DNA of 38,654 nucleotides from Campylobacterales bacterium. GTDB taxonomy: Bacteria; Campylobacterota; Campylobacteria; Campylobacterales; Sulfurimonadaceae. A program made the position numbers and the translations under genes. Below are positions 1 to 9,832 of the stretch, piece by piece (position 1 is the first letter of the stretch; each line of letters opens with the position of its first letter). The stretch is from the NCBI GenBank assembly GCA_024280035.1, contig JAJRQV010000015.1:1-38654 (forward strand), read 5' to 3'. Under the pieces are notes generated by a model, which worked only from the letters and a program-made list of their open reading frames with translations, was not told where the DNA came from and ran no database searches.

Positions 1-2
1 AA

Positions 3-3000
3 GAGTATAAGTCTGTACTGTATGGACAAGATAAAAAACTTTCACATTTTGCATTTTTTAGAGCCAATACTGAATATGAGCAGATTTCTAAAACACTCTC
101 TAATGTTTTTATTAACTCTAAGCTTGACTCGGGTTCGATTACAAAATCATTAGTCTCGAGTATTAGCGGTTTTGAAGCTATTGATTTAAATCAGATGCGC
201 CGTAATATTTCAGATTTTAGAGTTCAGTATGATGATATTAGCTCTTTTGAAAAAAATGCTTCTGTTATTAATGAAGTAGTCGAACGTTTAGGTGTATATG
301 AGGAGCAGACACAAGAACTCCATGATATCGCCTCATCCTTAGGTGCAAATACAAAAGATGCTGATAATGAACTGAATCTTTTAAAAGAAAAGACTTTAGC
401 TTTTACAAATGAACTCTCAACCTTAGAAATTAATCATGAAAAAAGAAAACAATTAGAAAGTATACAACATGATAAGGACTTAAAGGAACAAGGTGGCTTA
501 GAACGTGATATTAAAGAGGCTGAGTCAAAACAAAATGAGTATGAAAAGTTAAACATTAAACAGAAGCTAGAACTCTGGGAGAAAAAACCTCTACTTGAAG
601 ATGAACTTCTTGCCCTTGAATCACAACTTTCTAAGCTTTTGGATTCACAAGGTTCTTTAAGTGAACGTTTTGAAAAAATGCGTGAACATGAGTTAAAAAG
701 TTTTCATGATAAAGAGCAAAAACTTCGTTCAGATATTACTACGATTGAGCAAAAGTTTAATCATGCTAATGCTGAGTTTTTACAAGAAAAAGAGCTTCAA
801 ATTAGTACATATAGACACGAAGCAGATCTTCAGATGGAAAAACTATCAGTCTTGGTTTTTAAGGCTAAAGAAGAGAGTCTTTCTGCCTTGTCTGATGAAA
901 AGATTATTCATAATAGAAGTTTTGATAAAGAAAAAATTGAACAGGTTAAGAATGAACACTATAATGCCGTTCGTAGTTTTGAATCAGAACAGGTAAAACT
1001 TCAACTTTTACAGTCTGAGGTACAAAAGGTTGCTGAACAGATTTTTTCAGCAGAACAGTCTAAAAGTTATGCCATACAAAACTTGAGTATTAAACATGAA
1101 CAACAGAGCGAATCGCTAAGGCTTCAGATACACGAGCTTACAAAAAGAAAAAACCTTAATTCGACTTCACTTTTAGGATATATGAAAGAGAATAATTTTG
1201 AAAACAGTGTGCTTCTTTCGGCATTATTAAAAGATGAAGTTCTTTATGCTGAAAATTTAAATCCTTCTTTAAGTCAGGGAGATGGGACATTTTTAGGTTT
1301 AACGCTAGACACGAGTATTTTAGATCTTGATGCTTATGAAGAGAGTGCGCTTTCTCTGTCTTTAAGTGCAAGCCAAGAACGTCTTAAACGAATAAATGCC
1401 GACGCCTTAGTTGAAAAAGAAGAACTCGAAGGTGAGACAAAAAATTCTATTAATGCCTTAAGACGTGAACAAGGACGTATTAATACCTTAATTGATGAAT
1501 CTTTACGTAGACTTCCTACCTTAGAAAAAGAGAGTCTACTCTTAGCTGAGAAACTTCAAAGTCTTCAAAATCTTGCGGCTAAGAAAAAAGATGAAGAATT
1601 AAGTTTAGCAAGAATAACTAAGGATGAAAAAGAGAAGAGATATAAAGAACTTTTAGCCCAAGAACAGAGGCTAAAAACTGATCTTTCCCAAGAGTTGCAA
1701 AACTTACAAAATGATTTAAAGCGTAAACAAGAGTCTTTAATTGAAGATAAGACAGCCTTGGTTAATGCCAAAAATGAAGAACTTCTAAATATTAAAATAT
1801 TGTGTGATAAAAGCTTTGAAAAAATAAAAGAAGAAGAAGACGAGACCTTAGTTAAAGGAGGGGTAGATTCTATACTGCTTAAAAAGTATCAAGATAATAT
1901 AAAAGATAAAGAGAATGAACTTCAAAAAATTAAATCTTTTTCTGAACTGATTAATGAATATAAGATAGATCAAAAACGTATATTTTCTTCAGTAGGTCTA
2001 AAAACAAAAGCTCTTTCGAACTTATCTAAAAAAATACAAACAGAAGAAAAAGCTTTTCAACAGAGTGTAGAAAAGTATGAGTCTGATAAAGAAGAACTCT
2101 CTAAAAATAGAGATTTATTTTTAGGTAAACTTACAAAACTCCAAAAAGATTTGAAAGAGTATTTACACTTTAAAGAGACTCGTCTTTACCTTGAACTGAT
2201 TGAATATATTGAAAATACCCAACGTGAACCAAGCCAAGAGAGTCTATCAGAGATGATAAATAGACTAAGAGATCTTGGTTTTGAACATGCCAGTTCTAAA
2301 GATAAATTGCGTAAAAAACTAAACCGTGCCTTTTCTTCTTTAAGTTTACATAATATTTTTAATCTTTATGCTCCAGCCTCAGACTCAGATAAGGCAATTT
2401 TAGCTTCAGCGCATGGGCTTAAAACCTTTGTTCTCGAAGATAAAATACAGACCTATAAAGAGCAGGTGGCTAAAGAGTTTACGATGACACTGCGGCATCT
2501 TAGCTCAGAAGTAGGTGAACTTTTAAAAGCTGAGGGTGATATCTCTAAAACTGTTTCACGTATTAATAAGACCCTACAAGACCTTCAAGGTATTAAGGTG
2601 ATACGTGGGATAGAACTTCGTTATAAAGAGTCTGATAACCTTTTATTGAATGTTCTTAAAGCTATAGGTGTTCTTGTTGAAGAGAATCCTTATGGAAACG
2701 AGATAAATCTTTTCTCAGCAGAAACAAATGAACATTTTAATAAAAAAGCACTTAAGCACTTAGAAGAGTTAAGTCTGCATCTAAATGAAGAAAAGTCAGA
2801 TACTTTAAGTTTAGATGAGAGTTTTGTACTTGAGTTTAGAGCTATTGAAAATGGAAATGATACGGGTTTTGTGGCTTCGCTTGATGGTATTGGTTCAAAT
2901 GGTACAGATGTTATGGTTAAGGCAATGGTTAATATTGCTATGCTCTCTTTAGCCAGAAAACAGTCATCTAAACAAGATGCTTCTGTCTATTTTCACTGTA

Positions 3001-3191
3001 TCTTAGATGAGGTTGGCATCCTCTCACCCGCGTATTTAAAAGAGTTAATTGCTTATGCTAATAATAAAAAAATACGTTTTGTAAATGGTGCTCCTGACGA
3101 AAAACTTGTTTCTACGTATAAACGCTTATATATGCTCTCAACCAATACTAAACATCAAACTATAGTTAGAAAACTGGTCTCTCAATCATGA
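3..3191 (+). CDS. SMC/Rad50-like coiled-coil ATPase (JetC/MksF-like), N-terminus outside window
   Basis: The reading frame is open from the first complete codon at position 3, so the gene begins left of the window; an ATG at 195 is only an internal methionine. About 1060 residues are visible. Most are Glu/Lys/Leu-rich heptads typical of SMC arms, with a likely hinge or break near the middle. The last ~150 residues form the C-terminal half of an ABC ATPase head: a Gly/Ser/Asn-rich signature-like stretch (GSNGTD followed by a hydrophobic helix), then a Walker B-like FHCILDE about 60 residues from the end, followed by a short strand and an Ala-Pro-Asp turn. The Walker A end is not visible. It overlaps the downstream Toprim gene by four bases (ATGA), implying coupled translation. 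A DUF3584-type family is my best guess. A Wadjet or MksBEFG SMC subunit acting on plasmid DNA is an inference from the neighbour; a Rad50/SbcC-like repair role is the alternative. Confidence 0.75.
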   Translation, partial: EYKSVLYGQDKKLSHFAFFRANTEYEQISKTLSNVFINSKLDSGSITKSLVSSISGFEAIDLNQMRRNISDFRVQYDDISSFEKNASVINEVVERLGVYEEQTQELHDIASSLGANTKDADNELNLLKEKTLAFTNELSTLEINHEKRKQLESIQHDKDLKEQGGLERDIKEAESKQNEYEKLNIKQKLELWEKKPLLEDELLALESQLSKLLDSQGSLSERFEKMREHELKSFHDKEQKLRSDITTIEQKFNHANAEFLQEKELQISTYRHEADLQMEKLSVLVFKAKEESLSALSDEKIIHNRSFDKEKIEQVKNEHYNAVRSFESEQVKLQLLQSEVQKVAEQIFSAEQSKSYAIQNLSIKHEQQSESLRLQIHELTKRKNLNSTSLLGYMKENNFENSVLLSALLKDEVLYAENLNPSLSQGDGTFLGLTLDTSILDLDAYEESALSLSLSASQERLKRINADALVEKEELEGETKNSINALRREQGRINTLIDESLRRLPTLEKESLLLAEKLQSLQNLAAKKKDEELSLARITKDEKEKRYKELLAQEQRLKTDLSQELQNLQNDLKRKQESLIEDKTALVNAKNEELLNIKILCDKSFEKIKEEEDETLVKGGVDSILLKKYQDNIKDKENELQKIKSFSELINEYKIDQKRIFSSVGLKTKALSNLSKKIQTEEKAFQQSVEKYESDKEELSKNRDLFLGKLTKLQKDLKEYLHFKETRLYLELIEYIENTQREPSQESLSEMINRLRDLGFEHASSKDKLRKKLNRAFSSLSLHNIFNLYAPASDSDKAILASAHGLKTFVLEDKIQTYKEQVAKEFTMTLRHLSSEVGELLKAEGDISKTVSRINKTLQDLQGIKVIRGIELRYKESDNLLLNVLKAIGVLVEENPYGNEINLFSAETNEHFNKKALKHLEELSLHLNEEKSDTLSLDESFVLEFRAIENGNDTGFVASLDGIGSNGTDVMVKAMVNIAMLSLARKQSSKQDASVYFHCILDEVGILSPAYLKELIAYANNKKIRFVNGAPDEKLVSTYKRLYMLSTNTKHQTIVRKLVSQS

Positions 3192-4045
3192 AACTTACTC
3201 TTTCATTAGCCAAAAAGATATCCAAACTAGTGGAAGAAAAGAGTCTTAATAATAGTGAATTTAAAAATACTAAGGTCTTAAAAGAGCTTATAGATTATGG
3301 CATTATTCATTTACAAGTTAAGGGGCAAAAAACTAAAATATTACTTCTGTCTCTTTCTAAGCTTGAACTTTATCTATATCAGGTATATGGCATTGAAAGT
3401 TTAGACAATTTCATAAATGAAGCGCTTAATCCACTTAAATCACGAGCCGGTATATCTCAGGTGAGTTCAGATACAAAAAACTTCCATACAGAGGTTCAAG
3501 CAGGAATGTATTTGGCCTCATATGAAGCCATAAATATTGATATCAATGGGACAAATTATCTTTTAAATACGCCTTATATGAGTACATTTTTTCTTCATAA
3601 AAATGCAAAACTGAAACTGCATAAAGATATTTTAGTAGTAGGCGTAGAGAATTTTGAAAACCTTAGTTCAATTTCTAAGCAGGCTTATCTTTTTAAGGAT
3701 TCAAGAAAAAAGGTTTTTATCTATAGAAATAAATATTTACGAGAGTTTCTTTCAAGTTGTTTTAATGATTATCTTCATTTTGGAGACTTTGACTTAGCGG
3801 GGGTAAATATTTATTTGAATGAGATTGTTCCAAGACTGCCGCATGAAAGGCATAACTTTTTTCTTCCTAATAATATTTCTGAGCTTTTAGACAAAGCTAA
3901 TGCTCAAGACTACTTTTTACATTTAAAAAGGTTTCCAAACTTAAAGGCAAAAGCACCTTATTTAAAGGACTTTATTGCACTTTTACATCAAAAAAAACGT
4001 TCTTTACATCAAGAGTTTTTAATTAATAAGAGCTTTAATCTTTAA
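3188..4045 (+). CDS. Toprim-domain protein resembling Wadjet nuclease JetD / MksG
   Basis: This is a 285-aa protein. Its N-terminal third is helical and could be a winged-helix DNA-binding region. The C-terminal half carries a Toprim-like metal site: a hydrophobic strand ending in VGVEN (E154), then HFGDFDLAG (D200 and D202) about 45 residues later. This E...DxD layout, with an N after the E and an aliphatic-Gly after the DxD, is that of JetD and of topoisomerase VI A/Spo11 Toprim folds. In Wadjet the Toprim subunit cleaves circular DNA that the SMC motor has extruded. The ATGA overlap with the upstream SMC-like gene supports a two-protein complex. It ends by overlapping the convergent PAS gene by 11 bp. 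The family assignment is from motif and context only; an OLD-type or unrelated Toprim nuclease remains possible. Confidence 0.62.
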   Translation: MKLTLSLAKKISKLVEEKSLNNSEFKNTKVLKELIDYGIIHLQVKGQKTKILLLSLSKLELYLYQVYGIESLDNFINEALNPLKSRAGISQVSSDTKNFHTEVQAGMYLASYEAINIDINGTNYLLNTPYMSTFFLHKNAKLKLHKDILVVGVENFENLSSISKQAYLFKDSRKKVFIYRNKYLREFLSSCFNDYLHFGDFDLAGVNIYLNEIVPRLPHERHNFFLPNNISELLDKANAQDYFLHLKRFPNLKAKAPYLKDFIALLHQKKRSLHQEFLINKSFNL

Positions 4046-5070
4046 GCTGTTGAACAACAATAATATAAAGTTTTGAGCTGTTCTTTTTACCACTTAAGAG
4101 ACGAACATCTATCTTAATGGTAAAACTTTTATATTTGGTTTTATGCTTCACTTTATAGGTCATCTCTTTGATAATTTTAATGTACTCTTGTATACTTTTA
4201 AAACCAATGTTTTTTTGAAAAAGTTTAATGTCATCAAAATAAAGATTTTCATCTTCTTTAAGTTTAAACATCTTCATAAAGCGTGGGTTCATAGTGGTAA
4301 ACTTACCCTTAGCATTCATATATGCAATACCAAAAGGGAAATAATCAAAACCTACTTGAATACTATTTAGCCTCTTTTTGAGATGCGTATTCTCTTCAGT
4401 GAATTTACTAATATCACTTCCTACTGCAATCACATAGGTCTCTTCGTGCCAATGAACCTTTGTGACATTCCAGTTGATTCTATGTGTAATTTTATCTGTT
4501 CCTTTTAAGGAGGTAATAAAATGTTCTTGATGGTTTTCATGGGTATAAACATGTTTAAGATAGTGTTTCAGAGTCTCTCTATTTCCAGGAATGAAATTTT
4601 CAAAAAAAGTCTTTGCCTTCAATTTTTGACTTTTGCATGCCTACTAAATTACTAAAACACGCATTCGTCTCTACTATTTCACCCTTAGGATTAAGGACAA
4701 CAATAAGACTATCATAGATACCGTGTAAGTTATGAAAAGGAAGGCAGTCAAAAAGGTTAGGCAGAGGAACTTCTATAAAAATTATAAAAATATTTTTTTC
4801 TGTCTCTTCAAAATTTATAGTATATAAGTTATCAAAAATCTCATAATGGTAAAGGGTATAGGTTGTTTTTCCTGAGGCATGAGATTGATACTGTGTAATA
4901 AGTTTTTTTATAGATGCAGAAAATTCTTCTTCATGAGATTCTTGTGCAAGGAGCTCTTGCATGGTCGTATTATTATACTGAATAGACCAGCTTACTCCCT
5001 CTTTTTTTAAAAGAAGCATAGGATCACTTGATGTTGTGATAAAGGTGGATAAATGTTCAGAATTTTGCAT
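4035..5070 (-). pseudogene. PAS-domain protein, frameshifted in a homopolymer
   Basis: Two overlapping reading frames, 4600-5070 and 4035-4622, join into one 344-aa protein if one base is removed from the A7 run at 4602-4608 (T7 on the coding strand). The restored sequence reads continuously across the join as EGKDFFENFIP, a normal PAS-fold segment after a G(M/Y)xxxxIxGK-like motif. There seem to be at least two PAS modules (about residues 120-220 and 225-340) separated by a short coiled-coil. No kinase, GGDEF or methyl-accepting domain follows, so it is a stand-alone sensor or adaptor of unknown ligand. No clear Shine-Dalgarno precedes the ATG at 5070. The shift may be a sequencing error, a real mutation or a slippage-prone on/off tract. 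Confidence 0.72.
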
Positions 5071-8582: not shown

Positions 8583-9832
8583 ATGCTGCATAAAATTAGA
8601 AAATATACGACAACAAATACCTTAGTTATACTGGGCATTGTTTTGGGGTTACTTTTTGGATCCTTTTTACCTGAACTGGCTTTAAAACAAGAAGTGATAG
8701 GTCAAATGTTTATTAGTTTTTTAAAGATGTTAGTAGTCCCCTTAGTGTTTTCTAGTATTTATGTAGCGATTCTTGGTTTAGGAAACTTAAATGATTTAAA
8801 AACGATTGGTTTAAAAACAATAGGCCTTTATATGTTAACGACAGCGCTTGCCGTGCTCTTAGCTATTATAGCAATGAACCTTTTTCCTATAGGTGAGGTG
8901 GTCTCTGTAGATGGATTAGAGTATGAAAAGGCAAAAAACATAGCAGAGTTTTCTATTAAAGCAATGATTTTAAGTTTTATTCCTACGAATATCTTTAACT
9001 CATTAACCCAAGGTTCAATGATGCAAGTTATTGTTTTTTCTATTATGTTTGCTATCGCTTCTTTACACTTAAAAGAGCACAGACAAGAGCTGATGTTAGA
9101 CTTTTTCACAGGAGTAACTAATACTATGTTAAAAATGGCAGAATGGATTATTTACTTACGCCTATAGGAGTATTTAGTCTTATCTCTTATGTTATTGCTG
9201 AGCAAGGAATTGATGTTATTTTAGGTTTATGGAAACATATGTTAATGGTGGTAGTTGTGATTCTTATTCATGGTATTGTAACCTTACCTATGCTCTTAGC
9301 CTTATTAGGACATACAAATCCTTATACTTACTTAAGTGCTATTAGAGAAGCACCCATTATGGCATTTTCTACGGCTTCTTCAGCAGCAACCCTACCAGTA
9401 TCAATGCGTATTGCAGAAGATGAGGGTGGTGTTGATGAAAAAAATGCCGCCTTTGTTCTTCCTCTTGGTGCAACTGTTTCTATGGATGGTACAGCTGCGT
9501 ATCTAAGTGTTGCTGTTTTATATATTGCACACTTAGCCGGTGTTCAGATGGGTTTAGGTGAACAGCTTCTGTTAGGTGTAACTATTGTTGCTCTTAGTGT
9601 GGGTGTTGCCGCACTTCCTTCTGCTTCTTTAGTAATGATGGTCGTTATTTTACATCAGGTGGGGCTTCCTGTTGAGTATATCGCTTTAGTAGTGGCAGTA
9701 GATAGAATCTTAGATATGTGCCGTACCTCTTTAAATGTTACTTCTGATCTTGTGGTTTTAAAAATTGTAGATCAGATGGTTAAACGTAAGGAAGTAATAA
9801 ATCCCATGTCAGCTGATGTCAAACTCTCTTAA
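8583..9832 (+). pseudogene. dicarboxylate/amino-acid:cation symporter (DAACS), frameshifted
   Basis: Two frames, 8583-9167 and 9143-9832, make one 416-aa transporter if one base is restored near 9156-9160. The expected protein reads EWIIYLTPIGVFSLI through the join. Hallmarks of the GltP/DctA family are the N-terminal FISFLKMLVVPLVFSS, the first hairpin FSTASSAATLPVS, GATVSMDGTA, the second hairpin LPSASLVMM, and the substrate-binding segment DRILDMCRTSLNVTSD. It would import glutamate, aspartate or C4-dicarboxylates with Na+ or H+. Both halves are otherwise intact, so the loss is recent or a sequencing artefact. Its last codons overlap the next gene. Confidence 0.85.

What the first reader, a model, noticed from the sequence alone, without database searches (positions are those of the whole stretch)
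1..4045. Wadjet/MksBEFG-like SMC plus Toprim pair, apparently divergent
Seen: a >1060-aa coiled-coil protein with an SMC-type C-terminal head, overlapping by ATGA a 285-aa protein with E154...D200xD202. Known: in Wadjet and MksBEFG systems an SMC-type motor with kleisin and KITE partners extrudes circular plasmid DNA, and a Toprim subunit (JetD/MksG) cuts it. Inferred: this is the C-D end of such a system, with the kleisin- and KITE-like genes just left of the window. The signature loop (GSNGTD instead of SGGQ) and the small size of the Toprim protein suggest a divergent branch.
Basis: partly seen in the sequence, partly recalled or inferred. Interest (0 to 1): 0.72.

Follow-up and report, generated by a model that had tools for sequence, protein, structure and literature searches.

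The report
Compact Mks-type anti-plasmid SMC operon
The left end of the window is the second half of a four-gene bacterial machine that probably reels in circular DNA such as plasmids and cuts it; it belongs to a widespread but unannotated branch of the Mks/Wadjet family that uses a shortened cutting enzyme, and in this assembly one of its genes carries a premature stop.

Summary
The window opens inside an SMC gene. A second contig of the same genome ends with 141 bp identical to window 1-141, which restores the operon: putative kleisin (401 aa), KITE (Pfam MksE), SMC (about 1210 aa) and a 285-aa protein G. G matches DUF7281. Its relatives match JetD_C, and all 24 relatives aligned keep the Toprim residues E154, D200xD202 and the JetD Q275-E276 pair. 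The intact operon recurs in genomes of the window's order, Bacteroidia genomes and Bacteroidota plasmids, annotated as hypothetical where annotated. Every full-length short G checked lies beside an Mks operon. The SMC head aligns better with E. coli MukB than with type I JetC, and G is about 100 aa shorter than JetD: an MksBEF-type variant, not type I Wadjet. The odd signature loop (GSNGTD) is normal for this clade. G has been lost repeatedly while MksBEF was kept. Here mksE carries an in-frame TGA that no relative has; two neighbouring genes are frameshifted, so sequence error is possible. Best explanation: circular DNA is extruded, then cut. Structure prediction was inconclusive, the kleisin is named by position only, and nothing was tested experimentally.

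The parts
1..3191 (+). SMC subunit (MksB/MukB-like), 3' part; the gene starts about 440 bp left of the window on contig C89 (about 1209-1216 aa in all)
   Evidence: 141-bp exact overlap with C89; DUF3584; Walker A, signature and Walker B aligned with relatives
1176..1310 (+). conserved globular stretch between the two coiled-coil arms, probable hinge
   Evidence: coordinates; conserved pattern in the SMC alignment consensus; the hinge role is inferred
2892..2909 (+). ABC signature loop GSNGTD
   Evidence: G-S-x-G-T-[DS] in all clade-1 relatives aligned
3000..3017 (+). Walker B ILDEVG with catalytic glutamate
3188..4045 (+). short JetD/MksG-type Toprim nuclease subunit (DUF7281), 285 aa
3647..3649 (+). 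E154, Toprim metal-site glutamate
   Evidence: invariant in 24 of 24 short G proteins and in canonical JetD
3785..3793 (+). D200-x-D202, Toprim DxD
   Evidence: invariant in 24 of 24 and in canonical JetD
4010..4015 (+). Q275-E276, end of the JetD E-Q-E motif; the first E is H274 here

Best explanation
A four-gene MksBEF-type SMC operon with a compact nuclease subunit. The SMC (MukB-like heads, about 1210 aa), a kleisin and the KITE MksE form a DNA loop-extruding motor. The fourth protein, a short JetD/MksG-type Toprim nuclease (small N-terminal winged-helix-like region plus C-terminal Toprim), cuts the DNA when the motor has run round a small closed circle. The expected effect is removal of plasmids or other circular invaders, while the chromosome and linear DNA are spared. 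Shown here: operon structure, family relationships, conserved catalytic residues, purifying selection, strict co-occurrence of G with Mks operons. Inferred from Wadjet/MksBEFG work: extrusion, circle recognition, cleavage. In this particular genome the system is probably impaired if the TGA in mksE is real.
For: The contig join restores kleisin-KITE-SMC-G. MksE matches PF21980 with 91.5 bits across the stop and 126 bits in the intact Flavobacteriaceae relative. SMC matches DUF3584 (197-213 bits in relatives); its C-terminal head aligns with E. coli MukB over 200 columns (3.6e-7). G: DUF7281 above cut-off; close and intermediate relatives exceed the JetD_C cut-off (36.4, 35.5 and 22.5 against 22); 5 of 12 clade-1 short G proteins match JetD_C and 9 of 12 match a PADLOC JetD1 model; profile comparison of 24 short G with canonical JetD gives 6.4e-5 with E, DxD and QE in register, against 0.06-0.2 for negative controls; catalytic residues invariant in 24 of 24. 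Every full-length short G checked lies in or beside an Mks operon. C. glutamicum MksG, with the same Toprim site, is a plasmid-cutting nuclease (PMC10123090), and its MksBEFG lowers plasmid level without affecting chromosome folding (PMC7083940). The order shows no ScpB above cut-off in 150 genomes, and MksE-type genes in only 21 of 150, so most members live without either: accessory rather than essential.
Against: No experiment. The window's own G does not itself match JetD_C or any PADLOC model; the link is through relatives. Structure prediction was weak (pLDDT 62 and 34) and Foldseek gave no significant match. The kleisin is named by position and size only: no match to MukF, JetA or PDB. 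Conserved genomic neighbourhood within the genus also suits a housekeeping role. In this assembly mksE has an in-frame TGA.
Confidence: 0.68

Rival explanations
1. Chromosome condensin: MksBEF organises the chromosome here and G is a topology- or repair-related helper rather than a defence nuclease.
For: No ScpB above cut-off in 150 genomes of the order; the operon keeps parts of one neighbourhood within the genus; 5 of 6 genus members have it; in family f16 all six MksE-positive genomes sampled carry the SMC operon, four of them without a recognised G in the stretch fetched; operons without G keep intact MksBEF (L076, L078). P. aeruginosa MksBEF acts on the chromosome (review PMC10586767).
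Against: Only 14% of sampled genomes of the order have any MksE-type gene, so it is dispensable; G is kept in most clade-1 operons with an intact nuclease site under purifying selection; copies on plasmids and a decayed operon (L061) look like accessory defence genes.
Confidence: 0.2
2. Pseudogene or non-functional remnant in this genome, because mksE is cut at codon 107 by TGA.
For: In-frame TGA in mksE on contig C89, absent from all relatives aligned.
Against: Only one lesion in the four genes; homology continues across it, with similar dN before and after the stop. Two other genes in the same window are frameshifted, one at a poly-T run, so assembly or sequencing error is plausible.
Confidence: 0.3
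3. A Rad50/SbcCD-like DNA-end-processing pair instead of an SMC-kleisin-KITE machine.
For: Long coiled coil with ABC heads resembles Rad50/SbcC in general architecture.
Against: MksE lies upstream, no SbcD there; DUF3584/MukB-like heads; SbcC-like and SbcD-like genes occur as separate genes after G in L102.
Confidence: 0.02

Closest known systems
MksBEFG (C. glutamicum; Pfam MksE, JetD_C)
   Same: SMC, kleisin, KITE and a Toprim nuclease; same gene order F-E-B-G; metal-site E and D conserved
   Different: G is 285 aa and lacks the long N-terminal part (DUF3322); it matches DUF7281 rather than passing JetD_C
Wadjet type I (JetABCD)
   Same: four-subunit SMC plus JetD logic; E, DxD and QE motifs shared
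   Different: JetC has an SGGQ signature and profile distance is large; G is about 100 aa shorter; PADLOC JetC and JetD models do not recognise the window's proteins
MksBEF (P. aeruginosa) and MukBEF (E. coli)
   Same: MukB-like SMC heads (3.6e-7 over 200 columns) and an MksE KITE
   Different: those have no nuclease gene; here G is present in most operons
DUF7281 (PF23947)
   Same: direct family match of G
   Different: the Pfam entry has no assigned function; the search for DUF3584 or DUF7281 returned no paper mentioning DUF7281

Membership tests
MksBEF/MukBEF-type SMC complex | SMC with N-terminal Walker A and C-terminal signature, Walker B and coiled coil | tested here: met
   the head aligns with MukB
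MksBEF/MukBEF-type SMC complex | KITE subunit of the MksE family in the same operon | tested here: met
   PF21980 91.5 bits, but interrupted by TGA here; intact in relatives
MksBEF/MukBEF-type SMC complex | kleisin gene directly before the KITE gene | tested here: inconclusive
   a conserved 401-aa gene is there and resembles the same-position genes of clade 2 (1.5e-9), but no match to MukF, JetA, Pfam or PDB
MksBEFG / Wadjet | fourth subunit homologous to JetD/MksG with Toprim E and DxD | tested here: met
   for the window's own G only through intermediates
MksBEFG / Wadjet | Toprim fold of G | tested here: inconclusive
   AlphaFold2 with two sequences, pLDDT 62; no significant Foldseek match
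Wadjet type I | JetD with DUF3322 N-terminal domain, about 390 aa | tested here: not met
   285 aa, no DUF3322
Wadjet type I | recognised by PADLOC JetA/B/C/D models | tested here: not met
   no Jet match for the window's SMC part or G, nor for the kleisin-position protein
Wadjet / MksBEFG | restriction of circular plasmids | not testable with these tools
   needs a transformation or plasmid-stability assay

The most novel reading that the evidence does not exclude
A distinct, so far unnamed branch of SMC-based plasmid immunity, spread over the window's order and Bacteroidota, in which a MukB-like extruder works with a stripped-down Toprim nuclease; repeated independent loss of that nuclease shows how defence complexes turn into nuclease-free MksBEF condensins.
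Probability: 0.35. Interest if true: 0.65.

Novelty: new variant of a known kind. Interest (0 to 1): 0.45.

Why it matters
The window's proteins are missed by PADLOC and relatives are annotated as hypothetical where annotated, so SMC-based plasmid defence is probably undercounted in Bacteroidota and in the window's order. The short nuclease would be a minimal JetD for structural work. Closely related operons with and without the nuclease (L077 and L076 in one genus) allow a direct test of the proposal that MksBEF condensins arise from defence systems by nuclease loss.

Tried and rejected
Structure prediction of G with a two-sequence alignment, both ways round: pLDDT 62 and 34, no significant fold match, although Topo VI-A and winged-helix proteins are among the top weak hits. 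PDB sequence searches with short-G, kleisin and KITE profiles: no relevant match; the JetD/MksG hits are circular, because that profile contained canonical JetD. Direct profile comparison of clade-1 G with 3-4 JetD sequences: not convincing (0.016, 0.075 and 0.0076). Viral contigs and phage records: no relatives of G. SbcCD reading: rejected (MksE upstream). Chimeric contig join: considered because the two flanks match different genus members, but identity to relatives shows no break at the junction and both sides are nearest to the same relatives.

Full report
Observation. The window is the whole of contig C18 of a 2.5-Mb, 107-contig assembly. Contig C89 ends with 141 bases identical to window 1-141. 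Joining them restores the SMC start (Walker A GGNGAGKTT) and shows two upstream genes on the same strand: 401 aa (L003:12448-13653) and a KITE gene starting at L003:13640. SMC identity to relatives of the same genus runs smoothly over the junction, so the join looks sound, although reads were not available.

Upstream genes. The KITE gene matches Pfam MksE (62.7 bits for the first 106 aa; 91.5 bits when the match runs through the in-frame TGA). Four same-genus relatives carry an uninterrupted mksE. dN per site is similar before and after the stop, so the stop is recent or an error; two other genes of the window, a PAS-type gene and a sodium:dicarboxylate symporter, are frameshifted, the first at a poly-T run. 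The 401-aa gene sits where the kleisin sits in mksFEB operons, is conserved in all clade-1 operons and is related to the same-position genes of a second clade (1.5e-9), but has no match to MukF, JetA, Pfam or PDB; 'kleisin' is therefore inferred.

SMC. DUF3584 family. The signature is G-S-x-G-T-[DS] in clade 1 and S-S-[TS]-G-G-[SN] in clade 2, against SGGQ in canonical JetC of the same order and STGEAIGTGMS in E. coli MukB. The C-terminal head aligns with MukB over 200 columns (3.6e-7), clearly better than with canonical JetC (0.018). So the motor is MksB/MukB-like.

G protein. DUF7281, 31.9 bits. Clade-2 relatives L039 and L041 score 36.4 and 35.5 bits with JetD_C, and clade-1 L032 22.5, against a cut-off of 22; 5 of 12 clade-1 members match JetD_C and 9 of 12 match a PADLOC JetD1 model, but the window's own G matches neither. 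A profile of nine short G proteins finds a canonical JetD (L043) at 4.7e-6 among the session's reading frames. Twenty-four short G proteins against canonical JetD: 6.4e-5, with E, DxD and QE in register, against 0.06-0.2 for unrelated controls. K97, E154, N155, D200, D202, Q275 and E276 are invariant in 24 of 24. The first glutamate of the JetD E-Q-E motif is histidine in this genus. C. glutamicum MksG needs the matching metal-site residues E236 and D279 for cleavage (PMC10123090). AlphaFold2 with two sequences was too weak to settle the fold.

Distribution. The same four genes occur in a Flavobacteriaceae MAG (L030), Bacteroidia genomes (L100-L104), two Phocaeicola massiliensis and two Persicobacter plasmids (L062-L065; in L062 the KITE frame was masked by an antisense frame in my listing and not checked further), and genomes of the window's own order and genus (L031, L032, L074, L075, L077, L080, L081). 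In most clade-1 operons the SMC and G frames overlap or nearly touch. Short G occurs in 10 of 150 genomes of the order and 9 of 247 Bacteroidia, some of these hits being fragments; every full-length one checked lies beside an Mks operon, once a decayed one. No relatives were found in phage records or viral contigs. G is absent from L076, nested within the genus, and from L078, as well as several clade-2 operons, while MksBEF stays intact: repeated nuclease loss. The order name is not shown by the tools; from the gene content I take it to be Campylobacterales (own knowledge).

Mechanism. By analogy with Wadjet/MksBEFG (PMC10586767; PMC10123090; PMC7083940), the SMC-kleisin-KITE motor would extrude DNA and, on meeting itself on a small circle, release G to cut. 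This is inference. The main rival, a chromosome condensin, is weakened because only 21 of 150 genomes of the order have an MksE-type gene and none has ScpB above cut-off, so most members do without both.

Verdict. A real, complete-by-homology MksBEF-plus-nuclease operon of a compact, unannotated branch: a new variant of a known kind. Whether it works in this genome depends on whether the mksE stop is real.

Noticed in passing
window 4035-5070 (-): Two overlapping reading frames of one PAS-type gene, broken by a frameshift at a poly-T run.
   Followed up: partly
window 8583-9832 (+): Sodium:dicarboxylate symporter gene split into two frames by a frameshift.
   Followed up: partly
L003:13958-13960: In-frame TGA ending the mksE frame after 106 codons, absent from all relatives aligned; real mutation or sequence error cannot be told without reads.
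   Followed up: partly
L102 (G459) after G: A metallophosphatase (SbcD-like) gene and an SbcC-like gene directly follow the nuclease gene; a WYL regulator gene precedes the operon in L100, and L102 has a gene at the same place whose first residues are identical.
   Followed up: no
L061 (G081): Decayed operon: short G, kleisin and KITE intact, SMC reduced to a 195-aa fragment.
   Followed up: no
L076 and L080 (G167): One genome carries two Mks operons, one without G (a PIN-like gene follows) and one with G.
   Followed up: no
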